NCBI RefSeq assembly: GCF_026151205.1 | Contig: NC_087078.1 | Span: 2,063,675-2,127,674 of the forward strand | DNA from: Bolinopsis microptera | Taxonomy: Eukaryota > Ctenophora > Tentaculata > Lobata > Bolinopsidae | Length of the DNA: 64,000 nucleotides | Direction of reading: 5' to 3' | In this document: positions 21,805 to 60,396 of the stretch, in pieces | Layout: every line of letters starts with the position of its first letter | How positions within the stretch are numbered: position 1 is the first letter of the stretch | Notes under the pieces: generated by a model | What the model was told of the DNA's origin: nothing | Database searches by the model: none | Seen by the model: the letters and a program-made list of their open reading frames with translations, nothing else | Program-made: the position numbers and the translations under genes

Positions 21805-22043
21805 TTGTGAAGTACTGTACTACTCACGAAGTACTGTACACGATGTTTTCAACCCACGAGTCACTTATCAGAGAGCAAGCTCAACTGACGGCTCCCAGAT
21901 GGCGTATGCACATGTATGTGAATCAGTCTGATCAAGAAGTTGGTTGGGCTGTGATTGTATCGACCCTGAGTACCAAGCAAGCAGATATTTGAATTGACTA
22001 GATTTCCACTGATCAGCGATTCGGAAAATCATGGGCCGGCATA
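21805..22043. other. Conserved leader upstream of EEP genes
   Basis: The GAAGTACTGTACACGAT...GCTCAACTGACGGCTCCCAG stretch is shared with 34155-34383 and 56648-56877. No gene is seen. Confidence 0.4.
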
Positions 22044-22115
22044 GTGCCGGGGCGGGTATGATCCGCCAACCTCCGAGTTACATGCCTGGTGCTTTACCAA
22101 CTGAGCTACCGGCCC
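22044..22115 (-). tRNA. tRNA-Thr(UGU)-like sequence, copy 1
   Basis: The minus-strand 72 nt fold into a full cloverleaf: acceptor GGGCCGG pairs 6 of 7 with CCGGCAC, D arm GCTCAGTTGGTAAAGC, anticodon loop CATGTAA (anticodon TGT) and T stem GGCGG/CCGCC. The T loop ATCATAC is unusual and the anticodon stem has a mismatch. Three copies occupy the same place in the three units. It could be a tRNA or a tRNA-derived repeat. Confidence 0.5.
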
Positions 22116-23033
22116 TATTCAGTTCAGGAATTAATCCACAGGAATTAATCCACATATGTATACATACACTCTCTAAGCCACAAGAGATTCTACATCAAAT
22201 ATTGGTACACAGTAATCACTATGTAAAGCTATGGCTCAATGGCTGTCTACTTCATATTAAGTATATTTTCTTTACGTTAGTTCGGTTTGTTATCATTTAT
22301 TTCTTTGCTTCATGTAACAATATCTCCGCCAGGTTTAGGTATAACCCAACCTTGATCTGAGGATCTGATACCACTGCCATAAAGTAGAACACGGCATGAG
22401 TAACAAAAATGAGGGTTCATCTTCAAGCAGCATCATTAAAGAGGTAAACAGCGACATTGAAAAGATAAACAGTGACAATGAAGAAGAAAACAGCGTCATT
22501 GAAGAGGTGAACAACGAAATTGAAAAGGTAAACAGCGACAATGAAGAGGAAAACAGCGACAATGAAGATGAAAACAGCGACAATGAAGAAGTGAACAACG
22601 ACATTGAAAAGGTAAACAGCGACAATGAAGAGGAAAACAGCGACAATGAAGAGGAAACCAGCGACCATGAAGAAGTGAACAGCGACATTGAAAAGGTAAA
22701 CAGCGACAATGAAGAGGAAAACAGCGACAATGAAGAGGAAACCAGCGACAATGAAGAGGTTAACAACGACATTGAAGAGTTCACCAGCAGATTTAAACAT
22801 TTATTACACATCCCACCAACGGACGTAAGTAGCAGCGAAGATAAATTAGTTGCTCACCAAGGAACTAATTCGAACTTGGAGATCTCGTCATCGAGTAGTA
22901 AAAGTGGACAGTTAGAGACCAGCACTCCAGATGAAACCATGAGCTATGAGGATATTAACGATGAAAGTAGAGATGGAGATGGAGAAAAGAATGATATGAG
23001 AAATGCAACTTGTTACGTTTGCGGTAAATTTAT

Positions 23034-24009
23034 CTTAGTTGTAGTGAACGTACGGAACGTTCACTAAAAATAGTTTGTGAACGCGTTCGCTAAAAGATTT
23101 TAACGTTCGGAACATAAGGAACGTTAATTGTCGATGTTGATAATAGTCTTGCTTAGATTTTCAGACAATAGTATTAAGATTCCTGTTGGGTTTCATCGGT
23201 GTAATTTATTACAAATATTATCTGTTCACATTAAAGTTAGCAAATTTTGCTTTCCGCAATAGAAACCATAAAAGTGATATGGTTAGTCTTGCCAACAAAA
23301 GGTGGCTCGAGCTCCATTCCCCCTACATTCAATAGGGTTTTGTGTTCACCCGGCTTATCAGAGATATGATCAGCACACGAATCAGGATGTCTGGAAGGAG
23401 TTTCTAAATGTCATGGACACGTGGTGTGACGGCGCAACAAAGAAGAAGATACTTTCGCAGTACACGTTCTACCGAGAGAAAAGAGGCTTATTCTCTACTG
23501 ACGCTGCCTCAAGTTTTAGCCAAGATTCTGACGATCCAGTCTCTTGGTGGAGCTTAACTTCGGTTGCGAGGTGCCCGAACTACAGAGTTTTGCAATGAAA
23601 GCGCTGTCGCAATCGACATCAGCCTCACCCTGTGAGACGAATTGGAGCTTGTACGACTGGGTGATAAACAAAAAAAGAAACCGCCTCACAGTTGACAAGC
23701 AGTGAGACCTTACTTATGTTAACGCAAGTTTGCGTCTTATGAACCATTCACGAATTAAGGAGCAATAATTTCATTACTATTTGCTATACTAGTTTTTTTG
23801 CTACTTTTTTATTCATTATTATTTATTTAGTATTTTACTGTCTAATTCCGACAGCATGGTTTTATCTCATTGTATCCATCTAAAGTTAAAAACTATCGGA
23901 AAAATTATCAAAATATTGATTAACGTTCACTAACGTTCACAAACGTTCACTACAAAATGATTGGAACGTACGTTCAGTACGACTAAGTTCAGCGTTCACT
24001 ACAACTAAG
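23034..24009. mobile_element. hAT transposon with 17-bp TIRs and 8-bp target duplication
   Basis: Perfect inverted ends CTTAGTTGTAGTGAACG (23034-23050) and its complement (23993-24009) are flanked by AAATTTAT on both sides (23026-23033 and 24010-24017). Copies at 35170 and 57857 show the empty site. GAACGT/ACGTTC subterminal motifs recur near both ends. At 976 bp it holds only the C-terminal part of a transposase. Confidence 0.95.
23302..23705 (+). pseudogene. hAT transposase C-terminal (hATC) remnant
   Basis: The first part reads PLHSIGFCVHPAYQRYD and SDDPVSWWS, the typical lead into the hAT dimerisation domain. After a frameshift near 23550 the other frame continues with VPELQSFAMKALSQS, PCETNWSLYDWVI and NKKRNRL, and stops at TGA 23703-23705. 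These are hallmark hATC motifs. The catalytic DDE part is absent and the frame is broken, so this copy cannot make transposase. Confidence 0.85.
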
Positions 24010-25423
24010 AAATTTATGACACCAAATTGTACTCAAATCTCTTGTACTATTGCTAAATGCCCGAACAAAGCCCATCAAATGTGCGCCAAAATATCTCATA
24101 TCGATTATTTTAAAAAAGGAAGGGTCCGTTCGAAATGCTTTCCTTGTAAAGGCGAACCAATACCGACCCTTAAAAAAAGCAGCTGCCTCGTGTGTTCGGA
24201 AACTATAGGGCAAAAAGTCAATCGATTGACGTGTAAAATTAAAACATGCAAGAATGAATGCCATTTCAAATGCACAAAACTGGAGCGGGGTCGTTACGAA
24301 TACTTGTACTGTAATAATGCTTGGGAGTGTGACACAGACGATTGTAAGAAACTACCCCGTCCAGAATCTGGTACCATCCGGCAGCCCAATCTCAAATTTC
24401 TACAATGGAACGCAAGGGGCATCAACACAAAAACTGAGGAACTTAGCGCGCTAATGAAGAAGGAAAATGTAAATATAGTTCTTATCCAAGAAACTAAGCT
24501 CACGAACAATTGTATAAAAACTCCAGAAATACGCGGATACAAAGTTAAAAGAAAGGATAGGCTCCTAAGGCCCGGCTATATAAGTAAGGGTGGAGCCGGT
24601 GGAGGACTGATTATGTACATAAAAGAAGATCTGAATTTCAAGAGAAAAGAAGGCTTTGAACTTGACAGAGGAAATGTAGAAACCCTCAGTGTCAGCATCC
24701 AGCAAAAGAACGGAAAATGGTTTGATATAACAAATGTTTACTACCCTGGGCCCAAACCTGGGAGTAATTCGTCTGACGAGGCAAATATCGATTGGATCCC
24801 TGCATCCAACAACTGCGTGATTGCTGGTGATTTTAATGCCCACAATAAGCAATGGGACGAACAACCTGAAAACATCATGGGCAACAAAATTATTCAATTT
24901 ATGAACGATAAAGATATGGTTTGCTGCAATAACGGATCACCCACGTTTGTACATGGGTAAGTGAGCGCTAAGATGAAATGGCCATTGGGTTTCATTATAT
25001 ATTAGGACAAATTGACAAAAAATTACATTTCTGGTGAATGATAAACTAAATCGTGCATGATTGTAACCGTTCATAATTTATAAATGCATGCTGTTCGATC
25101 CGTGTGAATTATAAACATGAAAAGGTTAAATTTTACTTTTTTGAATAGATGTAAGTTTTGCAAAACCAAATTGCAGCCAGTTGTTGCAATTTTTAATTGC
25201 AGTTTTATTTTTATTTTTATCTTTCTACAGGGAGAGGAGAAGGAGAAGCGGTACCACCGAGGGTAAAAGTTCCCCTGACATAACTATGGTCTCCAAAACC
25301 CTTGAAAACTCATACTCGTGGCAGACTGCTGAAAATATAGGTTCAGACCACCTACCTATCATATTTGAAATCACAGGAGATGAACATGAAGTAGAACTTG
25401 ATAGGACCTTATTTGAGGTTTAA

Positions 25424-26095
25424 GTCGATGTATGAGTATTTAGTATAACTGGACATAACATTGTAGATTACACAGTACACAATACACATGGGTAAAGAGA
25501 CACAATTTATTAGCAGAATTTTATCGCAACTTAATCATTTTTATTGCGATAAAACAATAATTTCAGACTGATTTTTATTTTGTAATATACTGACGCATGT
25601 TTTAAATTTCTAACCTAGAAAAATATGAACATATTTCCTAATTTTCCTTATGTTAACTAATGGTAGTAAACCGCCAGTAAATACTATACGAAATTTCAAT
25701 TATTATTCATCTGATAATTTACAAACAGAATAAACACTTTTTAATCGATGATAAGAAAATATTACAATTACAATAAATTGATTTAGTTTTTCAAAATAAA
25801 ATTTCCGATACAATTGAAAAATATTTCTTTGTTTTAACCAATAAAAAGATTCCTTTCGAGATCTTAGTGATGAGATAAAATTACAACAATCAGCTCCTCT
25901 CAGTGGCGTAACGTTGCCCGGGGCCCTTCATTACGCCAACTTGCCCAACAATGAATTAATTTAAATTCAATTATACCTTTAAGTCATCATCATGATTATG
26001 CATGCGTAATATTACCAAACGTGACGCTCGCGTTCAAAAGATTCAACATATTTGCTCCGTTTAATTGAGCGAACAGAACAATATCATAGAAGCCG
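25424..26095. other. Downstream region of EEP copy A
   Basis: Shared with the regions after 36680, 46339 and 59343, up to the TTTGCTCCGTTTAATTGAGC motif. Near 26095 it is abruptly joined to the middle of the 495-residue protein gene. No gene is seen. Confidence 0.5.
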
Positions 26096-26096
26096 G

Positions 26097-26619
26097 GATG
26101 GTGGTACCATCTCCTCACGACCTCCTTCTGGGAGAGCAAGATCTATCAACACAGAGCTGAAAACGAGGCGTCACATGGCAGTGGGTACGAGCAAAACGTA
26201 CCACAAAGACATGACACGGCTGGGAAATGAGATGGAGAAGATGAAGGGACAAAGAGTAGAGCTGGAGAAACTTACAAAACAGCTGATAGAAGACCGGGAC
26301 TTGGCAGATAGACGGCTCCTGAGCTTGAAACCCCAGAAGAAGGTAATGAAGCGGTACGTGGTTAACTGTGCGTGCTCTACCACACCCCCTCGCGGGAACC
26401 ACCCCCGACACAGACAGTCCTCTCTCGTCCACTTGTCCTCCTCTTCTACCAGTCTAAGTTCTGATGGTTCAACTAAACCTAGGAGCAGAGTTCACACTTC
26501 ACAGTATGATTATATCAGAACCGGACAAAGAGGAGGGATGGAATGTTAGGGTTCTTACTCCGGCTAAATTATCGGACTTCAATAATCAGTATATCACAAG
26601 GGACAGTCACTTTTACTGA
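26097..26619 (+). pseudogene. 5'-truncated copy of the 495-residue protein gene
   Basis: Begins in the middle of the gene (GTISSRPPSGRARS, residue about 327 of the intact protein), directly joined to EEP-gene downstream sequence, so the start and most motifs are missing. The coiled-coil part (MTRLGNEMEKMKGQRVELEK) remains. A short duplication (ACTTCAC) near 26495 shifts the frame before the normal end. No promoter or start is available. Confidence 0.88.
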
Positions 26620-26947
26620 TGTTTATGTTATTTCTTATGAGATTTTCCCGATAAAGCGATTTGATTTAATAATGTTAGATTTGAACAATGTTTTCGCCGT
26701 ATTAACCATTCAAATTTTCACATATTCATGTTATAATTTTATTTTGATTAAAGTTTTAGTGGAATGGTGAAATGCTATAAAGAAATCTAAAACAAGAAAA
26801 CACATCATATCTAAATTAGGGCTAAAGGACTTAATTCATTTATTCGGCTACAACAATATAACCTCGGCCCAATAAAATAAACAGATTTATCGATATTATT
26901 TCGTAAAATTCCATATAATAAACTTGTTTTACTGTTACTTGTTACAG

Positions 26948-28225
26948 TTGACGATTTAAAGAATGTTGCTCTGCATAAAACCGTCACAAGTTCTGGTGGC
27001 GAGCTTGTTACAGAGGCTACTGATGGGAATCAAGACACTTGCTTCTCAACCAAGTATGTACTGATCAAATTGTTTAAAACCCTTCGTGTCCTACCTATAC
27101 AAATAATTTGAACGTTATAGCGTAATTATTTATATGAATTGATAGCATATTAATAAGGTAGCTACTAGCTGGAGACGATTTACACATGTATTTTGAAAGC
27201 TCCTGCTAAAACAAACTTTTCGTATCACTTATATTATGTTTTAAACAAATCCCCCTCCAGATAAGGTAGCACATTAAAAAGACGTTACAGATTTATGTTG
27301 TTTCGATGATGTTACAAATACAAGATAATACTCACGTATTTGACTGTACTACATATCAATATGAATAATAATTACGTCCAAGGTGTATAACGTAGTTATA
27401 TAACGTCCATAAGTTATATTTTCACTTGGGTCACTTTATTTCCTCAGTGTTTAAATTAAACAAATCATAACTTTTAAGTATCTCAAATCACAGAGAATCA
27501 ACGAACCCCTACTTCAAACTGGACCTGGGAAGAGCAACTAAGGTGCAAAGAGTTGAAATCATATCAACTGATCCCAAAAGCATTATTGGAAGCAAAGTTC
27601 ACATCGGAAATAGAGGTCAGAATTATATCAATAAAATTATCTGCGATTATATTAAACAATTCTGACGGTATATGCGATCACGCACACACGTGCGGTCGTG
27701 CTAATTAAAGCGTTTATCAGGATACCATATACTATACCACTAGCTCCGACACGATCCCAATAATCTCGTGAGTTTTTCAGGAGATTTTCTGGACAAAAGG
27801 ATCGGAGTTATCCGAGAAGTGGAAGGAAACAGAGCATTGATAGATTTGGAAGAGAGTGTGGAAGGTTCCAGACTATTTTGGGAGTTCTACAGTGGAGGAA
27901 GTGTAAGAACTTTGACTGTTTGCGAGATAAGGGTCCTGGCAGGTGATGGGGATGAAGATGGTGAGAACTAAGTTTATTTTGATATTCCTGGGAGTATACT
28001 GCTTTAATGATAATCTTACAAGCGAACTTAAAGCTTAAAACTTAAAACTCTAATAAAATTGATCTCAACGTCAATTGATCTAAAACACATTTATCAGAAT
28101 TTGAAGAAACAAAACAAACTTTTCCACTATGTTTTACCTACTAAATATTCTCAGATACGGAGGATTGTCCCCAGGGGACGGTAAAGTGTTCTGATAGAGT
28201 GTGTCGTCATGCACATATGTGCTAA
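26948..28225 (+). CDS. FTP lectin domain exons, unit 2
   Basis: Exons 26948-27053, 27494-27615, 27781-27960 and 28155-28225 have the same lengths and phases as in unit 1. All motifs are intact (NPYFKLDLGRATKVQ, KRIGVIREVEG, LTVCEIRVLAG). As in unit 1, no exon with a start codon or signal peptide is found upstream, and here the preceding gene is only a fragment. Exon integrity despite that suggests either recent duplication or use of a distant first exon. Confidence 0.78.
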
Positions 28226-31622: not shown

Positions 31623-34119
31623 CATGTGTTAAGTCTACGGCGGCGCCCGGCCAATAGGCAGGTCACACATTTTTTGCCAGGCTTGTATAACCGCGTCATA
31701 GTACTCAAGCGAACAACCATCCCCCTGTTCGCTAGGGCCGTTACTGCAGAAAGCCTCACGTCTAGAACAATTTATCATTTGTCGCTCCTCATCCTAGAGC
31801 ATCCTTGTCTCGTTACTTGTCACATGTAATTTTTCTAAAGAGGAACTGTATGGTGATATACAGAAAGAAAATCTGTAGTAGATTTTCAAAGACGACTGAT
31901 AATATTGCGGACGCCACACCAGCAATATGACAACCATACCATAATCCCACATTCGCATGTACCTTTATAGTGCTTAGCACTGTCCCAACTGCCAAAATAT
32001 TGCCAACACCTTTTGCCCAACAGAATTGCCAGCTACAGTTATACACTGTGCCTCAAAGAATATGGTGGAAATCACGTGAGGGTGAGATGGTAGGCCGGTA
32101 TAATATGTAGTGTAGTGCTGACACCTAAACAAGGACTGAGTGCAGTAGGACGGTATTATGCAAGTGTGGAAGTGATTCATTCGGGGTATTTTTGCGATTC
32201 TGTTTAAATCACTCATCACTCTCTTCGCTAGCCTCACCACTCTTAAATCATGGTTTTCTCAGTCTACTCAACAAAATATTGTTATCAGATTACATAGGAT
32301 AGTCGTATAAAATCTGACTTTTATCTCACTAATAAAGTAATAAGCCTCTCCCAACAGATTCATCACATTAAATAATAAGGATAAGTCGAAAAGGGTTCGG
32401 ATCCGGAGAGGGTGCCCCCAAGGTGGTATCCTTTCCCCTTTCCTCTGGAACCTGGTAGTCGATGATCTCCTGGCCTACACCGCAAGACCAGGTTATCTGC
32501 AAGCTTTTGCGGACGATCTGATTTCTCTAGCAGAGGGGAATGATTTAGATATCATCCGCAAAACCATCAACACAATAGAAAAATGGTGCCAAACCAAAGA
32601 TCTATGCATAAGCGCACTCAAAACACAAATAGTCATGTTTACCTGGAAGTGGAATAAGAAATGGACACTAAGACCTGTGGTGGTGGGTAACACCACTATA
32701 GGTCTTTCCGAATCTGCCAAATTCCTAGGAGTGACCCTCGACAGCAAGCTCAATTTTAATGAATATATCACCAATACCACCAAAAAAGCTACGGCATCCC
32801 TTATGCAATGTAAAAGAGCTGTCGGCCCCACATGGGGTATGGAGCCCCAAAATATGCAAATGGATGTACACCGCTGTCATCAGACCTATCCTATCATAAT
32901 GCTGTAGTATATAGATTAGGGCAATCCAAACAGATACCAACGCGAGGAAGTTCAAAAGAGTTCAGGCATTGGCATTGAGAATGATGTCTGGTGCCATGCC
33001 TATTGCCTAATACTCCCTTCATCGCACTGAACCACCTCACTAACACTTCAGAAATCATACTTTTCCTGAGAGGCGAAGCAGCAAAGGGTACTGCCAGGCT
33101 TCAAGCCTATGGTAGCCTAACCCTCGAAACTATCGCCCCCAGAAAATGTACCATCACAACTCACACCACTATCAACAAACAATTCATGGTAGACCTCAAC
33201 ATACCACCCAAAGCAGAGAGAGACCTATCTAATCTATACCTACCATGATGCTTGAACGACGCTTCACGGTCACCACTCCTGAAGCTGACAACATTGAATA
33301 TAGAGGCTCACTCCAAAACACCATCGACAACATACCCAGTGAAACCATCACAAAGCTACACAGACGGGTCACGCACAGACTCGGGTAGCGGGGCTGGTTA
33401 TATTATCACCACTGACAACAACATCACTACACTAAAAGAAAGATCATTCAAGCTTCCCGATTATTGCACCGTTTATCGAAGCTTGTAAATATCTCTCAAC
33501 TTATACCAACACACACATCATCATATGGTCAGACAGTCTCTCCTCTATTCAAGCTATATCCTCACCCTCAACGAGGAGTAGAACTAATAGAGACTGTTAC
33601 GACACCCTCAATACACTCGGATCCACTAACACCTTAGAGATCAGATGGATAGCTGCACACATCGGATTGTGGGGTAATGAAAAAGCAGATGATCTGGCCA
33701 AAATTGGCACAACCAGTGAATCCACTTTGAATTGCCCAATTCCACAATCTTACATCAAACGCCTGATCGACGACAAAGTCACCAAACTTAATCAAGAATC
33801 ATGGATTACTGATGGTCCTAGACACACTAAACTGACACTTGGACACAAAATCATCAACATCATCAAAAATGTCAACACTACACTCAGTAACAAAAGACAA
33901 AATTACAGAACTGCAGTGCACCTATTCACGGGACATTCATGTGGCCTTAACAAACACCTACATACCATTCGCAAATTAGACACACGTGCTTGTGGAGACT
34001 GTCTCACACTTTCTTGGACAGTGCCCGGCTATTGCCCAAATAAGAGGTCAATATTTCCGGGACTACTACCTCTCTGTCAATGACATATTCGACAACCAAA
34101 ACATCTCCACCATCGTCAA
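31623..34119 (+). pseudogene. LINE RT-RNase H fragment, unit 2 (most complete RT)
   Basis: 31623-31826 matches the LINE-associated leader of units 1 and 3. 31827-32370 is specific to unit 2. From about 32370 an RT frame reads KRVRIRRGCPQGGILSPFLW (motif B region) and QAFADDLISLAEG (motif C), then the thumb. RNase H starts with YTDGSRTDSGSGAGY near 33355-33400, has an internal deletion after CTVYR, and continues with the WGNEKADDLAK frame. The 780-bp tandem insert of the other units is absent. Frameshifts and the broken zinc knuckle make it a pseudogene. Confidence 0.85.
31813..32046 (-). other. Possible membrane-protein exon
   Basis: A minus-strand open frame contains two hydrophobic stretches (GNILAVGTVLSTI and CHIAGVASAILSVVFENLL) and an AG just upstream (GGCACAG). 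It lies in the part specific to unit 2. No family is recognised and no partner exons are seen; it may be chance. Confidence 0.2.
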
Positions 34120-34383: not shown

Positions 34384-34456
34384 GTGCCAGGGGCGGGTAT
34401 GATCCGTCAACCTCCGAGTTACATGCCGGGTGCTCTACCAATTGAGCTACCGGCCC
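34384..34456 (-). tRNA. tRNA-Thr(UGU)-like sequence, copy 2
   Basis: Same fold as the copy at 22044-22115, with small changes: D arm GCTCAATTGGTAGAGC is better paired, the anticodon loop is CATGTAA, and the T stem is weakened (GACGG). It lies about 300 bp upstream of EEP copy B. Confidence 0.5.
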
Positions 34457-34754: not shown

Positions 34755-36680
34755 ATGAGTAACAAAAATGAGGGTTCATCTTCAAGCAGCATCATTAAAG
34801 AGGTAAACAACGACATTGAAAAGATAAACAGCGACAATGAAGAAGAAAACAGCGTCCTTGAAGAGGTGAACAACGAGATTGAAAAGGTAAACAGCGACAA
34901 TGAAGAGGAAAACAGCGACAATGAAGAAGTGAACAACGACATTGAAAAGGTAAACAGCGACAATGAAGAGGAAAACAGCGACAATGAAGAGGTTAACAAC
35001 GACATTGAAAAGGTATACTCAGACTTGGAGATCTCGTCATCGAGTAGTAAAAGTGGACAGTTAGAGACCAGCACTCCAGATGAAACCATGAGCTATGACG
35101 ATATTAACGATGAAAGTAGAGATGAAGATGAAGAAAAGAATGATATGAGAAATGCAACTTGTTACGTTTGCGGCAAATTTTGGAGACCAAATTCTACTCA
35201 AATCTCTTGTACTATTGCTAAGTGCCCGAACAAAGCCCATCGAATGTGCGCCAAAATATCTCAGATTGATTTAAAAAAAGGAAGGGTCCATTCGAAATGC
35301 TATCCTTGTAAAGGCGAACCAATACCGACCCTTAAAAAAAGCAGCTGCCTCGTGTGTTCGGGAACTATAGGGCAAAAAGTCAATCGAATGACGTGTCAAA
35401 GTCAAACATGCAAGAATGAATGCCATTTCAAATGCACAACACTGCAGCGGGGTCGTTACGAATACTTGTACTGTAATAATGCTTGGGAGTGTGACACAGA
35501 CGATTGTAAGAAAAAACCCCGTCCAGAATCTGGTACCATCCGGCAGCCCAATCTCAAATTTCTACAATGGAACGCAAGGGGCATCAACAACAAAACTGTG
35601 AAACTCAGCAAGCTAATGAAGAAGGAAAATGTAAATATAGTTCTTATCCAAGAAACTAAGCTTACGGACAATTGTATAATAACTCCAGAAATACCCGGAT
35701 ACAAAGTTGAAAGAAAGGATAGGCTCCTAAGGCCCGGCTATATAAGTAAGGGTGGAGCCGGTGGAGGACTGATTATGTACATAAAAGAAGATCTGAATTT
35801 CAAGATAAAAAAAGGCGATGAACTTGACACAGAAAATATAGAAACCCTCAGTGTCAGCATCCAGCAAAAGAACGGAAAATGGTTTGATATAACAAATGTT
35901 TACTACCCTGGGCCTAAATTTAAAAGTAATCGCTCTGACGAGGCAAATTGCTCTGACCAGGCAAATTGCTCTGACGAGGCAAATTGGTCTGACGAGGCAA
36001 ATTGCTCTGACGAGGCAAATTGTTCTGACGAGGCAAATATCGATTGGATCCCTGCATCCAACAACTGCGTGATTGCTGGTGATTTTAATGCCCACAATAA
36101 CCTATGGGACAAACAACCTGAAAACATCATGGGCGACAAAATTATTCAATTTATGAAAGATAAAGATATGGTTTGCTGCAATGACGGATCACCCACGTTT
36201 GTACATGGGTAAGTGAGCGCTAAGATAAAATGGCCATTGGGTTTTATTAGGACAAATTGACAAAAAAATTACATTTCTGGTGAATGAGAAACTAAATCGT
36301 GCATGATTGTAATTTGTAAACGTTCATAATTTATAAATGCATGCTGTTCGATCCGTGTGAATTATAAAAGTATAAACAAAAGGTTGAATTTTACTTTTTT
36401 GAACAGATGTAAGTTTTGCAAAACCACATTGCAGCCAGTTGTTGCAATTTTTAATTACGGTTTTATTTTTATTTTTATTTTCTACAGGGAGAGGAGAAGG
36501 AGAAGCGCTACCACCGAGGGTAAAAGTTCCCCTGACATAACTTTGGTCTCCAAAACCCTTGAAGACTCATTCAAGTGGCAGACTGCTGAAAACATAGGTT
36601 CAGACCACCTACCTATCATATTTGAAATCACAGGAGATGAAAATGAAGTAGAACTTGATAGGAACTTATTTGAGGTTTAA
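34755..36680 (+). CDS. Zinc-module/EEP endonuclease-like protein, copy B (intact)
   Basis: Exon 1 (34755-36208), GT-AG intron (36209-36487) and exon 2 (36488-36680) give 548 residues. The N-terminus is Ser-rich, then acidic NSDNEEE-type repeats (to about residue 90). Two Cys-rich modules follow: CYVCGK...CPCKGEP, PHD-like, and CLVCSGTIG...CDTDDCKK. The EEP (APE-like nuclease) domain keeps its motifs: LQWNARGIN, LIQETKL, NVYYPGP, IAGDFNAHNNLWD, SSPDITLVS and IGSDHLPI. The last two lie in exon 2, so splicing is needed to complete the active site. A loop before IDWIPASNNC carries six 18-bp SDEAN repeats. The domain type is that of LINE endonucleases, yet RT is missing and an intron is present, suggesting a host-like gene. 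In cells such domains nick DNA; the role here is unknown. Confidence 0.85.
35931..36038. repeat. 18-bp (CSDEAN) coding repeat, six copies
   Basis: Six in-frame copies of a unit encoding CSDEAN, WSDEAN or RSDEAN (one SDQAN) lie between the YYPGP strand and the GDFNAH motif of the EEP domain. Copies A and C have one unit. Confidence 0.95.
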
Positions 36681-37136
36681 GTCGATGAATAACTGGACAT
36701 AACATTGTAGGTTACATATGGGTAAAGAGACACAATTTATTTGCAGAATTTTATCGCAACTTAATCATTTTTATTGCGATTAAACAATAATTTCAGACTG
36801 ATTTTTATTTTGTAAGATACTGACGCACGTTTTAAATTTCTAACCTAGAAAAATTTGAACATATTTCTTAATTTTTCTTATGTTAATTAATGGTAGTGAA
36901 CCGCCAGTAAATACTATACGAATTTTCGATTATTATTCATCTGATAATTTACAAACAGAATAAACACTTTTTAATCGATGATAAGAAAATATTACAATTA
37001 CAATAATTATAAATTGATTTAGTTTTTCAAAATAAAACTTTTGATACAATTAAAAAATGTTTTTTTGTTTTAACCAATAAAAAGTTTCCTTTCAAGAACT
37101 TACTGATGAGATAAAATTACAACAATCAGCTCCTCA
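36681..37136. other. Downstream region of EEP copy B
   Basis: AT-rich and shared with the regions after copies A, C and D. It continues into the secreted-gene tail block. No gene is seen. Confidence 0.4.
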
Positions 37137-38690
37137 GTGGCGTAACGTTGCCCGGGGCGTTACGCCACTGGCTCTTCTTATAGTTTTAACTTGCCCAACA
37201 ATAGATTAATTTAAATTCAATTATACCTTTAAGTCATCATCATGATTATGCATGCGTAATACTACCAAACGTGACGCTCGCGTTCAAAATGTTCAACATA
37301 TTTGCTCCGTTTAATTGAGCGAACAGAACATGAAAACAGCGATATCATAGTAGCCAGCCTCGCCCATGTTCAGCCCCTTAACCATGTCCCTCCACCAGGC
37401 CCAGTGGTCCGCACTGTCCAGCAGAACTGCGGCTGTTCCTTCGTCACCGTCAGTCATTACTTTTGCTACATCCTCCAGTATCTAAAATTGGGTTTGTTTT
37501 AGAAAAAAAGGTGAATTGCTGACGTTTAATTTTGAACGTCTTTTAAATGTTCCCTGACACACGTACTGATGTGAATTTTAAAGCTTGCGCTAAAAACGAA
37601 TCAGCTGCCAGATTGAAAATTTTCGGCTTTTTGTTTGACAACCCTTCCCCATCAATCGAGTAAATAGGACTTATAAAATTACGGCAGTCTACAAATTAAT
37701 CAATTTAATGAATCGATAGTAATATGAATCAATTATTATTAATTAAATCGTCTCTTACCTCCAAATCACCGAGGTCGAAGTCCAGTTTACGGAAATCTGG
37801 GCGAGGAGTCCTCAGATAGTCAATATTGGAATTATCCCCCCAGCAAAAATCGTAGTCGTTATCATACTCCTCATCCATGCTTCGTTTAGCTCTTCCCTCT
37901 TTGGACAAATCTGGGAGTTTTAGTTCAGTATAAACACCAAATATTAATGTTCCATCGTACAAGACTGAAAGATTATTAAGCAAATTTTAAATTTTCACTA
38001 AAAAATTTTTTTCTAAGTCTAATTTTTTTTTTCCCGTTTTTAAACTAGCATCTAATATTGATTCGGATAAAAAAGTGTTTAGTTCGTGCCAGTACGAAAC
38101 ACTTAAGTTTAGATAAGACTGTTATGAACCTAGCCAAAACACCTAAACCTATACTCACAACGAGCGGTAATAGTTTCATTTCCCGAAGTAATTCCAGGGT
38201 ATCGTAGCTTGAAAGCAAGAAAATGAAAATAATTCAGCACATCGTTATTCTCAACGTCAGTCACACAAGCGCAAATATCTGACTGCGGGTCCAAAAGCCG
38301 CGCGATCATCTTGTAGCTCCGAGCGACACTATCCCACATCTTCGACATGTGAAGAACGTGGGTTAACTTCACTAAGATGTTTTGGTTCCTTGACCCCCAG
38401 CCGGTTCGGTTCATTTTCCGCATTACCTGGACAGAGTTATTAATTTTGTTAAAAATACAGTAGAGCTTTATCCAGGTGCTCAACTATAGTAGCATGATCT
38501 GACGAAACTACCGGTAGTTAGTAGTTACCTAACTTAGTACAGTTTTATTTGATCAATAATAATACAATAAGTAGGTTATAACTTGTAATAAAAGTATCAG
38601 CAATAATCTAAAATAACAATTTAATCGGAAAGCTGAGTTCCCACCTTCAACTTCAAGCGTGCAACAAACCTGTTGGGATGTGCTATGTAC
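37137..38690. repeat. Secreted-gene tail block, copy 2
   Basis: Matches 1-1550 and 59790-61140, then 61465-61672. The 325 bp at 61140-61465, which hold exon 3 of the secreted-protein gene, are missing here between CTTTATCCAGG and CAACTATAGTAGC. The block ends where exon 2 of that gene is fused to a LINE endonuclease fragment. Confidence 0.75.
37729..38426 (-). pseudogene. Last two exons of the secreted-protein gene, truncated copy
   Basis: Exon 38159-38426 encodes MNRTGWGSRNQNILVKL...DICACVTDVE...ITAR and ends at a GTGAGT donor. Exon 37729-37964 follows in phase with LYDGTLIFGVYTELKLPDL, a possible processing site GRAKRSM, an acidic Tyr/Asp stretch and stop TGA. The two exons read through without a stop, better than the unit 3 copy. 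The signal-peptide exon and exon 3 are missing, so it is probably not a working gene unless another start is used. Confidence 0.6.
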
Positions 38691-44515: not shown

Positions 44516-46339
44516 ATGAGTAAAAAGAATGAGGGTTCATCTTCGAGCAGCGACATTGGAGATGTAAACAGCGGATTAAACAAATTACACATTGATGTTG
44601 ATAAAGTTGATAAAGTTGATAAAGAAGGAACTAATTTGGACTCGGAGATCTCGTCATCGAGTTGTAAAAGTGGAAATGAAGATATAAACGATAAAAGTAG
44701 AGTTGGAGATGGAGAAAAGAAAGAAACTTGTGTTTCTTGTGAACAAATTATTAGGAAAACATCCGAAGAATACACACCAGTATCCTGCAAGGAACCTGGA
44801 TGTATCCTGAAAAGTCACAAAATAGAGAAATGTAGTGGTCTCAATAGATTAGAACAGCAGAAAGGCGTCTGGATGTGCTATAATCATGGAGGAAAGGATA
44901 TGAGAAGAAGCCCAGTAATACAGGTACCGACAGAAGAACAGAAAAATGCAACTTGTTACATTTGCGGCAGGAAACCAAAATCTGGTTCTACTCTAATCCC
45001 TTGCGATAAGTGCCCGAACACCGCCAACCCAAGTTGCACCGACTTATCTTTCTATGATGTCAAAAAAGCAAGGGACAATAAGACCGGATGGACCTGCAAA
45101 CGCTGTAAAGGCGAACCGATACCGAGCCTTAAACAAAGCAGCTGCCTCGTGTGTTCGAAAACTATACGTACAGGAGACAATCGAATGATGTGTAAAACAT
45201 GCAAGAAAGAATGCCTTTTAAAATGCACAGGGAACCAGGAGGATCGTAACAAATACTTGCGCGATGAAAATGCTTGGGAGTGTGACGATTGTTTTGAATT
45301 ACCCCGGCCAGAATCTGATACCATCCAGCCCAACCTCAAATTTCTACAATGGAACGCAAGGGGTATCAACACAAACACCGAGAAACTTAGCGCGCTAATG
45401 AGGAAGGAAAATGTAAATATAGTTCTTATCCAAGAAACTAAGCTCACGACCAATTGTACAAGAACTCCAGAAATGCACGGATACAAAGTTGAAAGAAAGG
45501 ATAGGCCCGGCAATATAAGTCAGGGTGGAGGACTGATTATGTACATAAAAGAAGATATGAATTTCAAAAGAAAAACAGACGTTGAACTTGACAGAGGAAA
45601 TGTAGAAACCCTCAGTGTCAGCATCCAGCAAAAGAACGGAATATGGTTTGATATAACAAATGTTTACTACCCTGGGCCCCAACCTGGGAGTAATTCGCCT
45701 GACGAGGCAAATATCGATTGGATCCTTGCATCCAACAACTGCGTGATTGCTGGTGATTTTAATGCCCACAATAACCTATGGGACGAACAACCTGAAAACA
45801 TCATGGGCGACAAAATTATTCAATTTATGAAAGATAAAGATATGGTTTGCTGCAATGACGGATCACCCACGTTTGTACATGGGTAAGTGAGCGCTAAGAT
45901 GAAATGGCCGTTGGGTTTCATTAGGACAAATTGACAAAAAATTACATTTCTGGTGAATGAGAAACTAAATCGTGCATGATTGTAAACGTCCATAATTTAT
46001 AAATGCATGCTGTTTGATCCGTGTGAATTATAAGCAATAAGGTTACATTTGTACTTTTTGAACAGATGCAAGTTTTGCAAAACCAGATTGCAGCCAGTTG
46101 TTGCAATTTTTAATTACGGTTTTATTTTTATTTTTATTTTCTACAGGGAGAGGAGAAGGAGAAGCGCTACCACCGAGGGTAAAAGTTCCCCTGACATAAC
46201 TTTGGTCTCCAAAACCCTTGAAGACTCATTCAAGTGGCAGACTGCTGAAAACATAGGTTCAGACCACCTACCTATCATATTTGAAATCACAGGAGATGAA
46301 AATGAAGTAGAACTTGATAGGAACTTATTTGAGGTTTAA
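44516..46339 (+). CDS. Zinc-module/EEP endonuclease-like protein, copy C (divergent, three zinc modules)
   Basis: Exon 1 (44516-45882), intron (45883-46146) and exon 2 (46147-46339) give 519 residues. It lacks the long acidic repeats. Instead it has an extra Cys/His module near residues 65-125 (CVSCEQII...CKEPGC...HKIEKCSG...WMCYNHGG), then CYICGRKPKSGSTLIPCDKC and CLVCSKTIRTGDNRMMCKTC modules. Paired cysteines are more regular than in the other copies. The EEP domain keeps LQWNARGIN, LIQETKL, NVYYPGP, GDFNAHNNLWD, SSPDITLVS and SDHLPI. Only one SDEAN unit is present. It may be closest to the ancestral form. It has no tRNA-like sequence or LINE tail immediately upstream, unlike A, B and D. 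Confidence 0.85.
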
Positions 46340-46625
46340 GTCGATGAATAACTGGACATAACATTGTAGATTACATATGGGTAAAGAGACACAATTTATT
46401 TGCAGAATTTTATCGCAACTTAATCATTTTTATTGCGATTAAACAATAATTTCAGACTGATTTTTATTTTGTAAGATACTGACTTGACATATTCATGGCC
46501 GTTTAGAAACGGACTGTTGTTGTTTTTCTTAACATGGTCATCTTTGAGCAGATGAGTCATCAGTCAACAGCGTACAAGTATAAGCAGTGAAAGATTAAAC
46601 AGATTTGAAACCAAGTTGGAGAAAT

Positions 46626-48113
46626 ATGTCTTCCAAACCCAAAGATTCGTCCAGAGTCCGACAGAAAGCAACAAACAGTACTGGAGAGCCCTCACGGAGA
46701 GTGTCTTCTCTGGAATCTGTCCGTGAAGATGACGAAACGAAAGAAAGAAAAACAATGCAGAGTAAATCAGTAGGAAGCAGACCAAAAGCAGTGCCAACAA
46801 ATCTTTCTATGATCAAAGTCCAGGAGGAGAAAATCAATGTTGCAGATGTGAAAAATTTGAAGGATATAACCGCTCTAACAAGCAAGATACTCGGGGAAAA
46901 CAAAAATGTGGTAGCAGTCGAGGGAAATTTGAAGAAAAAACTCATACTCTCCTACCTGCCCCCACCACCAGCTCCGGTCACTATTTTGAAGGAAACAAAG
47001 AAGAAGAAGAAGAAGAAGAAAAAGCGTGTTGAACTGAAGTCACGTGGTACAGTGACAGTTCCACCTCCCATTACAGTAGACTCAGGAACCTGGACACCCT
47101 CCCCCAGGACCCGCTCTCAGAGTGTTAGCACTAATTTGTGTTCCGCTGATGTAGGGGTGCAGGGTGAGGTGGTTAGGAGACGGGAGTTCAGTACGATGAC
47201 TGAGGAGAGGAGGAAACAGGGTGTTACTGTGGGGGTGGGGACAGAGACTCCCGAGGGAGGAAGGGTGGAGAAGAGAGTTGTGACAGTGAACAGAGGAGTG
47301 CAAGGAGAACCGTTTATAGGAGACAAAGAGAAGGTGAGGAGAAGGATGGTGTCGGTTGGAGTGAGCTATAAACCCCCGACAGGGACAAAGTCTGTTGGAA
47401 CAGAGATAACGAGGAGGACCAAAATGACAGAGACTGAGATAACCAAGGTGGAAGATAAAGGACACACAGCAGTTCCCTCCTCAACTCACTGCAGCACTAA
47501 CACTAGGACGTTACAGATTTCAGATAGAGGAACAGTCACAGATACACAAATCTCCCACACCAAGCATCTTTCTACCTCAGATCTCAGGTCCTTCCGGGAT
47601 GTGGGTACCATCTCCTCACGACCTCCTTCTGGGAGAGCAAGATCTACCAACACAGAGCTGAAAACGAAGCGTCACATGGCAGTGGGTACGAGCAAAACGT
47701 ACCATAAAGACATGACACGGCTGGGAAATGAGATGGAGAAGATGAAGGGACAAAGAGTAGAGCTGGAGAAACTAACAAAACAGCTGATGGAAGACCGGGA
47801 CTTGGCAGAGAGACGGCTCCTGAGCTTGAAACCCCAGAAGAAGGTAATGAAGCGGTACGTGGTTAACTGCGCGTGCTCTACCACACCCCCTCGCGGGAAC
47901 CACCCCCGACACAGACAGTCCTCTCTCGTCCACTTGTCCTCCTCTTCTACCAGTCTAAGTTCTGACGGTTCTACTAGACCTAGGAGCAGAGTTCACAGTA
48001 TGATTATATCAGAACCGGACAAAGAGGAGGGATGGAATGTTAGGGTTCTTACTCCGGCTAAATTATCGGACTTCAATAATCAGTATATCACAAGGGACAG
48101 TAACTTTTACTGA
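46626..48113 (+). CDS. Basic coiled-coil protein with repeated motifs, unit 3 copy
   Basis: A full-length 495-residue copy with only scattered substitutions relative to 9410-10897 (for example RVSSLESVREDDE for RGSSLESVREDEE). All repeated motifs (VGVQGE, FSTMTE, VGVGTE, RGVQGE, SVGTE, STNT, RGTVTD, RDVGT) and the coiled coil are kept, and the lysine run is unchanged. The sequence more than about 140 bp upstream of the ATG is replaced by EEP-gene downstream DNA, so the unit 1 TATA-like box is lost. Conservation of a complete frame suggests the copy is young or still selected. Confidence 0.75.
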   Translation: MSSKPKDSSRVRQKATNSTGEPSRRVSSLESVREDDETKERKTMQSKSVGSRPKAVPTNLSMIKVQEEKINVADVKNLKDITALTSKILGENKNVVAVEGNLKKKLILSYLPPPPAPVTILKETKKKKKKKKKRVELKSRGTVTVPPPITVDSGTWTPSPRTRSQSVSTNLCSADVGVQGEVVRRREFSTMTEERRKQGVTVGVGTETPEGGRVEKRVVTVNRGVQGEPFIGDKEKVRRRMVSVGVSYKPPTGTKSVGTEITRRTKMTETEITKVEDKGHTAVPSSTHCSTNTRTLQISDRGTVTDTQISHTKHLSTSDLRSFRDVGTISSRPPSGRARSTNTELKTKRHMAVGTSKTYHKDMTRLGNEMEKMKGQRVELEKLTKQLMEDRDLAERRLLSLKPQKKVMKRYVVNCACSTTPPRGNHPRHRQSSLVHLSSSSTSLSSDGSTRPRSRVHSMIISEPDKEEGWNVRVLTPAKLSDFNNQYITRDSNFY

Positions 48114-53566: not shown

Positions 53567-54340
53567 TGTTGTGGAACACAACAAGAAAATTGAGAATAAT
53601 CTTGTGCGAGGGTAGGGGCCCAGATGTCGTTTCTAACCCAAATAAACTTTAAGGAGGCTTCTCATCAGTAGCCGCACCTCCTTACTCGGTTTCTGAACTG
53701 GAATTCTATGGGCTTCTAGACGGCCAGACCGAGTATTACCATCCCATCCTTCTAGAGTTCATCACAAGTAGCACCCACCTTGAAGATCTTTGACACCTAG
53801 ACACACCCCATTGGCGAACAAACTTTGGATATAATCTTACATGCTCCCGAAGGAATCCCTGGTTTATGGTCTTTCTCATCGTCACCAGCACTTTCACTAA
53901 AGTCACCAGCCCTTTCACTGGAGTCATCAGCCCAATCACTGAAGTGTACAGAAGTACAGTTGTGGAACACAAAAAGAAAATTGAGAATAATCTTGTGAGA
54001 GGGTAGGGACCCAGATGTCGTTTCTAACCCAAATAAACTTTAAGGAGGCTTCTCATCAGTAGCCGCACCTCCTTACTCGGTTTCTGAACTGGAATTCTAT
54101 GGGCTTCCAGACGGCCAGACCGAGTATTACCATCCCATCCTTCTAGAGTTCATCACAAGTAGCACCCACCTTGAAGATCTTTGACACCCAGACACACCCC
54201 ATTGGCGAACAAACTTCGGATATAATCTTACATGCTCCCGAAGGAATCCCTGGTTTATGGTCTTTCTCATCGTCACCAGCACTTTCACTAGAGTCACCAG
54301 CCCTTTCACTGGAGTCATCAGCCCAATCACTGAAGTGTAC
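53567..54340. repeat. Two tandem 390-bp repeats inserted in RNase H, unit 3
   Basis: Units start at 53568 and 53959 (GTTGTGGAACACAA), matching the pair in unit 1 at the same site. The insertion and its duplication therefore predate the split of units 1 and 3. Confidence 0.8.
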
Positions 54341-54925
54341 ACTGACAACAACAACACTACACTAGACGAAATATCATTCAAGCTTCCCGATTATTGCACC
54401 GTTTATCAAACAGAACTCACTGCCATCATCGAAGCTTGTAAATATCTCTCAACTTATACCAACACACACATCATCATATGGTCAGACAGTCTCTCCTCTA
54501 TTCAAGCTATATCCTCACCCTCAACGAGGAGTAGAACTAATAGAGACTGTTACGACACCCTCAATACACTCGGATCCACTATAAACACCTTAGAGATCAG
54601 ATGGATAGCTGCACACATCGGATTGTGGGGTAATGAAAAAGCAGACGATCTGGCCAAAATTGGCACAACCAGTGAATCCACTTTGAATTGCCCAATTCCA
54701 CAATCTTACCTCAAACGCCTGATCGACGACAAAGTCACCAAACTTAATCAAGAATCATGGATTACTGATGGTCCTAGGACCTAGACACACTAAACTGACA
54801 CTTGGACACAAAAACATCAACATCATCAAAAATCTCAACACTACACTCAGTAACAACAGACAAAATTACAGAACTGCAGTGCACCTCATCACGGGACATT
54901 CATGTGGCCTTAACAAACACCTACA

Positions 54926-56620: not shown

Positions 56621-56877
56621 ATTTGGTTGGGGAGGCGGATTATCGTTGTGAAGTACTGTACTACTCACGAAGTACTGTACACGATCTTTTCAACCCACGA
56701 GTCAGAGAGCAAGCTCAACTGACGGCTCCCAGATGAAGTATGCACATGTAGGTGAATCAGTCTGATCAAGAAGTTGGTTGGGCTGTGATTGTATCGACCC
56801 TGAGTACCAAGCAAGCAGATATTTGAATTGACTAGATTTCCACTGGTCAGCGATTCGGAAAATCATGGGCCGGCATA

Positions 56878-56949
56878 GTGCCGGGGCGGGTATGATCCGC
56901 CAACCTCCGAGTTACATGCCTGGTGCTCTACCAATTGAGCTACCGGCCC
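56878..56949 (-). tRNA. tRNA-Thr(UGU)-like sequence, copy 3
   Basis: Same cloverleaf as the other two copies. Acceptor GGGCCGG/CCGGCAC, D arm GCTCAATTGGTAGAGC, anticodon loop CATGTAA, T stem GGCGG/CCGCC with loop ATCATAC. It lies about 280 bp upstream of EEP copy D. Confidence 0.5.
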
Positions 56950-57229
56950 TATTCAGCTCAGGAATTAATCCACAGGAATTAATCCACATATGTATACATA
57001 CACTCTCTAAGCCACAAGAGATTCCACATCAAATATTGGTACACACTAATCACTATGTAAAGCTATGGCTCAATGGCTGTCTACTTCATATTAAGTAGAT
57101 TTTCTTTACGTTAGTTCGGTTTGTTATCATTTATTTCTTTGCTTCGTGTAACAATATCTCCGCCAGGTTTAGGTATAACCCAACCTTGATCTGAGGATCT
57201 GATACCACGGCCATAAAGTAGAACACGGC

Positions 57230-59343
57230 ATGAGTAACAAAAATGAGGGTTCATCTTCAAGCAGCATCATTAAAGAGGTAAACAGCGACATTGAAAAGAT
57301 AAACAGTGACTATGAAGAAGAAAACAGCGTCATTGAAGAGGTGAACAACGACATTGAAAAGGTAAACAGCGACATTGAAGAGGAAAACAGCGACAATGAA
57401 GATGAAAACAGCGACAATGAAGAAGTGAACAACGACATTGAAAAGGTAAACAGCGACAATGAAGAGGAAAACAGCGACAATGAAGAGGAAACCAGCGACA
57501 ATGAAGAAGTGAAAAACAACATTGAAAAGGTAAACAGCGACAATGAAGAGGAAAACAGCGACAATGAAGAGGAAACCAGCGACAATGAAGAGGTAAACAA
57601 CGACATTGAAGAGTTCACCAGCAGATTTAAACATTTATTACACATCCCACCAACAGACGTAAGTAGCAGCGAAGATAAATTAGTTGCTCACCAAGGAACT
57701 AATTCGGACTTGGAGATCTCGTCATCGAGTAGTAAAAGTAGACAGTTAGAGACCAGCACTCCAGATGAAACCATGAGCTATGACGATATTAACGATGAAA
57801 GTAGAGATGAAGATGAAGAAAATAATGATATGAGAAATGCAACTTGTTACGTTTGCGGCAAATTTTGGAGACCAAATTCTACTCAAATCTCTTGTACTAT
57901 TGCTAAATGCCCGAACGAAGCCCATCAAATGTGCGCCAAAATATCTCAAATTGATTATTTTGAAAAAGGAAGGGCCCGTTCGAAATGCTTTCCTTGTAAA
58001 GGCGAACCAATACCGACCCTTAAAAAAAGCAGCTGCCATGTGTGTTCGGAAACTATAGGGCAAAAAGTCAATCGAATGACGTGTAAAACATGCACGAATG
58101 AATGCCATTTCTCTTGCACAAAACTGCAGCGGAATCTTTACGAAGACTTGTACTGTAATAATGCTTGGGAGTGTAACACAGACGATTGTAAGAAAAGACC
58201 CCGTCCAGAATCTGGTACCATCCGGCAGCCCAATCTCAAATTTCTACAATGGAACGCAAACGGCATCAACACAAAAACTGTAGAACTTAGCGCGCTAATG
58301 AAGAAGAAAAATGTAAATATAGTTCTTATCCAAGAAACTAAGCTCACGGACAATTGTATAAAAACTCCAGAAATACGCGGATACAAAGTTGAAAGAAAGG
58401 ATAGGCCCGGCAATAAAAATCAGGGCGGAGGACTGATTATGTACATAAAAGAAGATCTGAATTTCAAGATAAAAAAAGGCGATGAACTTGACAAAGGAAA
58501 TGTAGAAACCCTCAGTGTCAGCATCCAGCAAAAGAACGGAAAATGGTTTGATATAACAAATGTTTACTACCCTGGGCCTAAATTTAAAAGTAATCGCTCT
58601 GACGAGGCAAATTGGTCTGACGAGGCAAATTGCTCTGACGAGGCAAATTGGTCTGACGAGGCAAATTGCTCTGACGAGGCAAATTGTTCTGACGAGGCAA
58701 ATATCGATTGGATCCCTGCATCCAACAACTGCGTGATTGCTGGTGATTTTAATGCCCACAATAACCTATGGGACAAACAACCTGAAAACATCATGGGCGA
58801 CAAAATTATTCAATTTATGAAAGATAAAGATATGGTTTGCTGCAATGACGGATCACCCACGTTCGTACATGGGTAAGTGAGCGCTAAGATAAAATGGCCA
58901 TTGGGTTTTATTAGGACAAATGGACAAAAAATTACATTTCTGGTGAATGAGAAACTAAATCGTGCATGATTGTAATTTGTAAACGTTCATAATTTATAAA
59001 TGCATGCTGTTCGATCCGTGTGAATTATAAAAGTATAAACAAAAGGTTAAATTTTACTTTTTTGAACAGATGTAAGTTTTGCAAAACCACATTGCAGCTA
59101 GTTGTTGCAATTTTTAATTACGGTTTTATTTTTATTTTTATTTTCTACAGGGAGAGGAGAAGGAGAAGCGCTACCACCGAGGGTAAAAGTTCCCCTGACA
59201 TAACTTTGGTCTCCAAAACCCTTGAAGACTCATTCAAGTGGCAGACTGCTGAAAACATAGGTTCAGACCACCTACCTATCATATTTGAAATCACAGGAGA
59301 TGAAAATGAAGTAGAACTTGATAGGAACTTATTTGAGGTTTAA
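57230..59343 (+). CDS. Zinc-module/EEP endonuclease-like protein, copy D (intact, longest)
   Basis: Exon 1 (57230-58872), intron (58873-59150) and exon 2 (59151-59343) give 611 residues. The acidic repeat region (about residues 15-125) is expanded. Cys-rich modules start at CYVCGKFWRPNSTQISC and CHVCSETIGQKVNRMTCKTC. EEP motifs are LQWNANGIN, LIQETKL, NVYYPGP, GDFNAHNNLWD, SSPDITLVS and IGSDHLPI. The first motif has ANGI where the other copies have ARGI. Six SDEAN repeats lie at 58595-58702. All EEP catalytic-type residues are present after splicing. Confidence 0.85.
58595..58702. repeat. 18-bp SDEAN coding repeat, six copies, copy D
   Basis: Six in-frame 18-bp units (RSDEAN, WSDEAN, CSDEAN and so on) in the same EEP loop as in copy B, with a different order of C/W variants. 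Confidence 0.95.
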
Positions 59344-60396
59344 GTCGATGAATAACTGGACATAACATTGTAGATTACATATGGGTAAAGAGACACAATT
59401 TATTTGCAGAATTTTATCGCAACTTAATCATTTTTATTGCGATAAAACAATAATTTCAGACTGATTTTTATTTTGTAAGATACTGACGGACGTTTTAAAT
59501 TTCTAACCTAGAAAAATATGAACATATTTCTTAATTTTCATTATGTTAATTAATGGTAGTGAACCGCCAGTAAATATTATACGAATTTTCAATTATTATT
59601 CATCTGATAATTTACAAATAGAATAAACACTTTTTAATCGATGATAAGAAAATATTACAATTACAATAAATTGATTTAGTTTTTCAAAATAAAATTTCCG
59701 ATACAATTGAAAAATATTTCTTTGTTTTAACCAATAAAAAGTTTCCTTTCGAGATCTTAGTGATGATATAAAATTACAACAATCAGCTCCTCAGTGGCGT
59801 AACGTTGCCTGGGGCCCTTCGTTACGACACTGGCTCTTCTTATAGTTTTAACTTGCCCAACAATAAATTAATTTAAATTCAATTATACCTTTAAGTGAAA
59901 GTCATCATCATGATTATGCATGCGTAATACTACCAAACGTGACGCTCGCGTTCAAAAGGTTCAACATATTTGCTCCGTTTAATTGAGCGAACAGAACATG
60001 AAAACAGCGATATCATAGTAGCCAGCCTCGCCCATGTTCAGCCCCTTCACCATGTCCCTCCACCAGGCCCAGTGGTCCGCACTGTCCAGCAGAACTGCGG
60101 CTGTTCCTTCGTCACCGTCAGTCATTACTTTTGCTACATCCTCCAGTATCTAAAATTGGGTTTGTTTTAGGAAAAAAAAATGTGAATTGCAGACGTTTAA
60201 TTTGGAACTTTTAAATGTTCCCTGACACACGTACTGATGTGAATTTTAAAGCTTGCGCTAAAAACGAATCAGCTGCCAGATTGAAAATTTTCGGCTTTTT
60301 GTTTGACAACCCTTCCCCATCAATCGAGTAAAATAGACTTATAAAATTACGGCAGTCTACAAATTAATCAATTTAATGAATCGATAGTAATATGAA
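59344..60396. other. Region between EEP copy D and the secreted-protein gene
   Basis: AT-rich and shared with the region after copy B. It contains the CAGTGGCGTAACGTTGCC and TTTGCTCCGTTTAATTGAGC blocks. No gene is seen. Confidence 0.4.

What the first reader, a model, noticed from the sequence alone, without database searches (positions are those of the whole stretch)
34755..36680. Intron-split zinc-module + EEP nuclease gene family without reverse transcriptase
Four copies (22396, 34755, 44516, 57230) share one exon-intron layout: the EEP domain is cut by a 264-279 nt GT-AG intron between PTFVHG and the SSPD...SDHLPI part. LINE endonucleases normally sit in one exon fused to RT. A shared intron argues for spread by DNA duplication, and for a LINE-derived gene taken over by the host. 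Three copies keep all EEP catalytic motifs after splicing.
Basis: partly seen in the sequence, partly recalled or inferred. Interest (0 to 1): 0.75.

Follow-up and report, generated by a model that had tools for sequence, protein, structure and literature searches.

The report
Intron-split gene family from retrotransposon nuclease
A small cluster of genes appears to have been built from the DNA-cutting half of a jumping gene, has gained an intron, has lost the copying enzyme and keeps changing while staying readable, so the host may be using it.

Summary
Four window copies share a phase-2 GT-AG intron of 264-279 nt between PTFVHG and SSPD...SDH. Joining the exons completes the endonuclease profile PF14529 (copy F 45.4 to 71.8 bits). 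The copy at 22396 is broken by a 976-bp transposon. The genome adds three cluster copies, one degenerate, and a paralog 1.07 Mb away with an intron at the same position. The closest relatives are two intronless LINE copies with zinc modules, EEP, RT and RNase H in line; copy F matches their zinc+EEP part colinearly (35% over 483 aa). RT fragments near the gene belong to another LINE. Cluster copies lie in duplicated DNA blocks. In coding sequence 17 of 17 indel intervals are multiples of three, in the intron 1 of 8. Cluster dN/dS is 1.29-2.15, below p 0.05 in 13 of 36 tests; on the branch to the paralog it is 0.41. Best reading: a gene family derived from a LINE endonuclease. Expression, orthologs and function are untested.

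The parts
34755..36208 (+). Copy E exon 1: acidic repeats, zinc modules, most of EEP
   Evidence: Pfam PF03372 and PF14529
36209..36487 (+). Copy E intron, 279 nt, GT-AG, phase 2
   Evidence: 7 of 7 scored matches lie in the cluster
36488..36680 (+). Copy E exon 2: end of EEP (SSPD...SDHLPI) and stop
34793..35015 (+). 21-nt in-frame repeats coding the acidic N-terminus of copy E
35928..36038 (+). 18-nt repeats inside EEP of copy E; same in G (58592-58702), absent from A, B, D, F
44516..45882 (+). Copy F exon 1, keeps the N-terminal zinc module shared with the LINE
45883..46146 (+). Copy F intron, 264 nt
46147..46339 (+). Copy F exon 2
57230..58872 (+). Copy G exon 1
58873..59150 (+). Copy G intron, 278 nt
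59151..59343 (+). Copy G exon 2
22396..24956 (+). Copy D exon 1, interrupted by a transposon at 23034-24009
23034..24009 (.). 976-bp hAT-like insertion in copy D; 17-bp perfect inverted ends, 8-bp target duplications at 23026-23033 and 24010-24017
   Evidence: the hAT label is recalled from the ends and the duplication length, no family search was run
24957..25230 (+). Copy D intron, 274 nt
25231..25423 (+). Copy D exon 2
32344..34083 (+). RT and RNase H fragments of a different, high-copy LINE; taken as passengers, not part of the gene

Best explanation
A host gene family derived from the N-terminal part (PHD-like zinc modules plus EEP endonuclease) of a LINE protein of the kind still present as intronless elements in this genome. 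RT and RNase H were lost, a spliceosomal intron now sits inside the EEP domain, and the cluster copies multiplied by DNA duplication, not by retrotransposition. Shown: anatomy, intron position, relationship to the LINE, block duplication in the cluster, frame maintenance. Inferred: direction of descent (LINE to gene); that the spliced mRNA makes a zinc-guided nuclear nickase, while intron retention would give a product that ends at the donor without the last catalytic D and DH. Inferred and weakest: the rapid coding change and copy number reflect a conflict, most plausibly interference with LINE integration (competition for chromatin targets or abortive nicking).
For: Colinear zinc+EEP match of copy F to the LINE frame, 35% over 483 aa, E 8e-88. 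Gene copies and LINE L013/L014 form one clade among LINE endonucleases, support 98/98. Same phase-2 intron position in all 7 copies whose exons were joined (A, B, E, F, G, H, D). Joined exons extend PF14529 to its end: F 45.4 to 71.8, E 34.1 to 62.4, H 53.8 to 85.5 bits (exon 1 alone, joined EEP). Among scored candidates no copy lies outside the cluster and H (150 of 317 scored). Duplicated blocks extend kilobases past the gene, e.g. 35019-38477 vs 57704-61143 at 95.3%. 17 of 17 coding indel intervals in frame. No stop among at least 228 substitutions, 9.2 expected if unconstrained. Omega on the H branch 0.41, LRT 28 against 1. No RT similarity in the 2.0-3.0 kb downstream of the 5 copies examined, A, E, F, G, H.
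Against: No transcript data and no second species. Within the cluster dN/dS is about 1 or above: pairwise 1.08-1.45 from the zinc region on, with 1 inside the interval in 10 of 10 pairs, which also fits relaxed constraint. EEP dN exceeds the raw intron difference in only 5 of 10 pairs. Two of 7 cluster loci are broken (C, D). The stop-codon count is biased, because the copies compared were chosen as intact. The H branch includes the stem of the cluster, and its zinc alignment is poor. In the tree the gene copies without the LINE are only 84/61, and long branches are flagged. PF03372 still ends early in E and F after joining. The conflict function has no direct evidence.
Confidence: 0.6

Rival explanations
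1. Non-functional relics: an old LINE fragment that acquired an intron-like segment and is merely carried along by segmental duplication.
For: Omega about 1 or above inside the cluster; EEP dN about equal to the intron's difference; copies C and D broken; unrelated LINE debris is duplicated with the genes.
Against: 17 of 17 coding indel intervals in frame vs 1 of 8 in the intron; EEP motif residues kept in A, B, D, E, F, G and H; no stops where 9.2 were expected, with the ascertainment caveat; H branch omega 0.41; splice sites kept.
Confidence: 0.2
2. A LINE-derived nuclease recruited for ordinary DNA metabolism (abasic-site or nick processing), with no role in transposon control.
For: The EEP motif residues remain, so catalysis may be the selected function (residue roles recalled).
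Against: Tandem copies with omega at or above 1 and unstable acidic repeats are unusual for housekeeping repair genes (the expectation is recalled).
Confidence: 0.2
3. Reverse direction: the LINE captured its zinc+EEP part from a spliced mRNA of this gene family.
For: Absence of the intron in the LINE does not by itself fix the direction.
Against: EEP before RT is the usual LINE arrangement (recalled), and LINE loci fetched by their RT here carry EEP in the same frame; the gene's EEP groups among LINE endonucleases.
Confidence: 0.07

Closest known systems
LINE element at L013/L014 (this genome), zinc modules-EEP-RT-RNase H in one frame
   Same: Zinc modules in the same order and EEP, 35% over 483 aa with copy F
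   Different: No intron; about 1060 further residues with RT and RNase H; its RT lies at 8 dispersed places at 85% identity or more
L1TD1 (mammals), a LINE-1-derived gene
   Same: Coding sequence from a LINE, more than one coding exon, a glutamate-rich stretch that changes length, signs of positive selection (PMC4161310, passages read)
   Different: From ORF1p, not the endonuclease; overall purifying selection with few fast sites (same passages)
PHD-bearing CR1/L2 LINE ORFs
   Same: PHD domain in LINE proteins, in some groups at the N-terminus of a single ORF (PMC4120745, passages read)
   Different: Mobile elements; 'intron' and 'domesticat' do not occur in that paper's main text
R1Bm and L1 endonucleases (2ei9, 1vyb)
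   Same: Nearest solved chains by sequence: E 1.6e-5 for joined EEP of F, 0.006 for exon 1 of G
   Different: Come from full LINE proteins

Membership tests
EEP / LINE-type endonuclease | Match to EEP profiles over the domain | tested here: met
   Joined EEP: PF14529 2-117 of 117 in F, 28-117 in E, 2-116 in H; PF03372 1-225 of 225 in H, but only 1-174 in E and 1-165 in F
EEP / LINE-type endonuclease | Active-site residues N, E, Y, D-N, D, D-H | tested here: met
   for copy E; alignment of A, B, E, F, G, H; D; residue roles recalled
EEP / LINE-type endonuclease | Nicking activity | not testable with these tools
   needs protein
Autonomous LINE (non-LTR retrotransposon) | RT in the same reading frame or element | tested here: not met
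   No RT similarity in 2.0-3.0 kb downstream of A, E, F, G, H at E up to 1; RT fragments upstream belong to another LINE family
Autonomous LINE (non-LTR retrotransposon) | Dispersed, intronless copies | tested here: not met
   Scored copies lie only at C7:2.02-2.12 Mb and 3.19 Mb (150 of 317 candidates scored); the 7 copies joined all have the intron
Domesticated transposon gene | Sequence descent from an element | tested here: met
   Relationship shown; the direction is inferred
Domesticated transposon gene | Selective constraint on the protein | tested here: inconclusive
   Frame kept and H branch omega 0.41, but cluster omega at or above 1
Domesticated transposon gene | Transcription and correct splicing | not testable with these tools
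   no RNA data held
Domesticated transposon gene | Orthologs at the same place in other species | not testable with these tools
   the tool states that G000 has no relatives held
PHD finger | Profile score over the curated cut-off | tested here: not met
   PF00628 21.7 bits (cut-off 24) in F; PF13832 22.9 (cut-off 27) in E; so called PHD-like only

The most novel reading that the evidence does not exclude
A host gene family made from a LINE's own targeting and nicking half that now acts against LINEs, evolving under diversifying selection in a tandem array, with the intron inside the catalytic domain allowing an active (spliced) and a dead, competing (intron-retained) form.
Probability: 0.2. 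Interest if true: 0.8.

Novelty: new variant of a known kind. Interest (0 to 1): 0.55.

Why it matters
Genes made from LINE proteins seem rare. A 2014 paper calls L1TD1 the only known domesticated gene almost entirely derived from LINE-1 (PMC4161310, passages read), and that one comes from ORF1. A family made from the endonuclease half, with an intron and kept reading frames, would be a further route by which hosts recruit LINE parts. Ten paper searches ran in the open-access library; in what they listed I saw no gene of this kind. The lists were capped (for example 40 of 320 papers, mostly about crop and yeast domestication, and 12 of 192), only titles, abstract openings and the passages named were seen, and subscription journals are mostly missing, so this does not show that none is in print. 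The question is directly testable with RNA-seq and sister genomes.

Tried and rejected
Intron as a dispersed repeat: rejected, 7 of 7 scored matches lie in the cluster. RT and RNase H fragments beside the genes as the gene's own missing half: rejected, the RT matches a LINE family with frames of up to 1333 aa at 93% (150 of 3494 candidates scored; RNase H), and that family's EEP is not in the match lists of the gene. Retrocopies: none seen in those lists. Phage and viral collections: no match (reaches close relatives only). Structure prediction: switched off, so no fold comparison. Positive selection: estimates above 1 in all 36 sets (1.29-2.15), but p below 0.05 in only 13 of 36, 11 of them with the divergent copy F included; pairwise intervals include 1 in 10 of 10 pairs from the zinc region on; so it is called suggestive. 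Gene conversion was not modelled; exon 2 of E, F and G is identical, which points to it. The tree left out L033 and L035 as near-duplicates of L032, and had no row for L024 (no motif hit) or L031 (not tried).

Full report
Observation. The window lies at G000:C7:2063675-2127674 of a 264.65-Mb assembly. Copy E reads from ATG 34755 to a donor after 36208; the frame closes at once beyond it (PTFVHG, stop). The acceptor ends at 36487 and exon 2 runs to the stop at 36680, giving 548 aa. The donor is GTAAGT and the acceptor follows a T-rich tract ending CTACAG. Copies F and G have the same layout with 264- and 278-nt introns; copy D has 274 nt. The four copies of the finding are real, with one correction: D is interrupted at 23034-24009 by a 976-bp insertion with perfect 17-bp inverted ends and an 8-bp target duplication.

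More copies. A search of the whole genome with the EEP part of exon 1 gave 19 matches (150 of 317 candidates scored): 13 in the cluster at C7:2.02-2.12 Mb, 2 at C7:3.19 Mb, and 4 in two LINE copies on C5 and C10. In loci these are A, B, C (degenerate, frames broken), D, E, F, G and the distant paralog H. H has a predicted 145-nt GT-AG intron at the same phase-2 position, with 21 residues between CCN and SSPDI in both H and E. H's donor is weaker (AG|GTGCAA), and its intron rests on the reading frame alone. The intron of E matches 7 of 7 scored candidates, all in the cluster; H's intron is not among them.

LINE relatives. L013 holds an open frame of 1652 aa with EEP, RT and RNase H and zinc modules before them. 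L014 is a copy 99.1% identical over 4941 bp, whose frame is split by two stops. Copy F aligns to L013 from the first zinc module to the end of EEP at 35% over 483 aa. At the intron position both LINE copies read on without any insert (SPTRINRGTGGMSSPDI), with 14 residues where E and H have 21. So the segment is absent from the LINE and is not coding there. In the EEP tree of 19 rows the gene copies and L013/L014 form one clade with 98/98 support among LINE endonucleases; the gene copies alone reach only 84/61, and several long branches are flagged.

Not a mobile element. No RT similarity follows A, E, F, G or H within the 2.0-3.0 kb examined. The RT and RNase H fragments upstream of E belong to a different LINE family (RT 93% to frames of up to 1333 aa; 150 matches, 150 of 3494 candidates scored). 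Similarity between cluster copies extends beyond the gene, for example 35019-38477 against 57704-61143 (95.3% over 3483 bp) and 24010-27464 against the region of copy A (98.6% over 3455 bp). Copy F is the weak case: its similarity to E and G stops about 140 bp past its stop codon (66% in the 400 bp downstream, 82-86% in the 400 bp upstream). H's flanks were not compared. No intronless copy of the gene was found among those examined.

Coding constraint. Among A, B, E and G, 17 of 17 distinct coding indel intervals are multiples of three; in the intron of A, B, E, F and G, 1 of 8 is; in 400 bp of flank of A, B, E and G, 2 of 5 upstream and 1 of 3 downstream are. Fisher p for coding against intron is 1.7e-5, or 1.6e-4 if the 6 intervals that are multiples of the 21-nt unit are left out; two 90-nt intervals, five 18-nt units each, were kept. 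At least 228 substitutions separate A, B, E, F and G from the zinc region on, with no stop where 9.2 would be expected without constraint; for A, B, E and G over the whole CDS it is 154. Choosing intact copies biases both. Joining the exons raises PF14529 from 45.4 to 71.8 bits in F, from 34.1 to 62.4 in E and from 53.8 to 85.5 in H; PF03372 gains little in E and F (38.2 to 41.6, 35.6 to 38.7) and more in H (46.3 to 54.5).

Selection. Pairwise counts give dN/dS 1.08-1.45 inside the cluster from the zinc region on, with 1 inside the interval in 10 of 10 pairs, and 0.47-0.58 against H, with 1 outside in 5 of 5. With copy F left out it is 1.52-1.82, p 0.047-0.155, 1 of 6 below 0.05. EEP alone is 1.33-2.10 with p 0.03-0.29. 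On the branch to H, which includes the stem of the cluster, omega is 0.41 against 1.55 inside the cluster (LRT 30.5), and 0.49 for EEP alone. EEP dN is about the intron's rate: 0.029-0.086 against 1.1-8.4% raw intron difference, higher in 5 of 10 pairs. So protein change in the cluster is near or above neutral while the frame is held. That fits diversifying selection, or relaxed selection with recent loss, and the data do not decide. Gene conversion (identical exon 2 in E, F, G) was not modelled.

Anatomy and mechanism. F and H keep the N-terminal zinc module seen in the LINE; A, B, E and G have acidic repeats there instead. E and G carry an 18-nt repeat insert within EEP. Zinc modules score just under Pfam's PHD-type cut-offs. 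Inference: zinc modules bring a nickase to chromatin; splicing decides whether the last catalytic residues are present. A role against LINEs is a hypothesis by analogy to L1TD1, for which its authors suggest an ancestral role in genome defence (PMC4161310, passages read).

Verdict. Host use is likely but not shown.

Noticed in passing
window 9383-10897, 46599-48113, part at 26025-26549: A 504-aa open frame duplicated with the array; no Pfam match for the first two.
   Followed up: partly
C7:2043000-2045529 (L017 1-2529): A long minisatellite left of the window, period near 24-27 bp as judged from the offsets; it starts at the edge of the fetched stretch and may go on.
   Followed up: no
window 22042-22116 and 56876-56950, minus strand: tRNA-Thr (TGT) genes a few hundred bases upstream of copies D and G; a similar-looking stretch near 34395-34456 before E was not called.
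   Followed up: no
window 53568-54341: A 391-bp tandem duplication between the RT and RNase H fragments.
   Followed up: no
L013 1139-6079: The LINE frame starts with a stretch that recalls a Tudor-like fold (recalled, no match in Pfam), and both copies end in CAC repeats.
   Followed up: no
L026, L028: Other LINE loci here carry an upstream frame that looks AlkB-like plus esterase-like (recalled on reading; no family search run).
   Followed up: no
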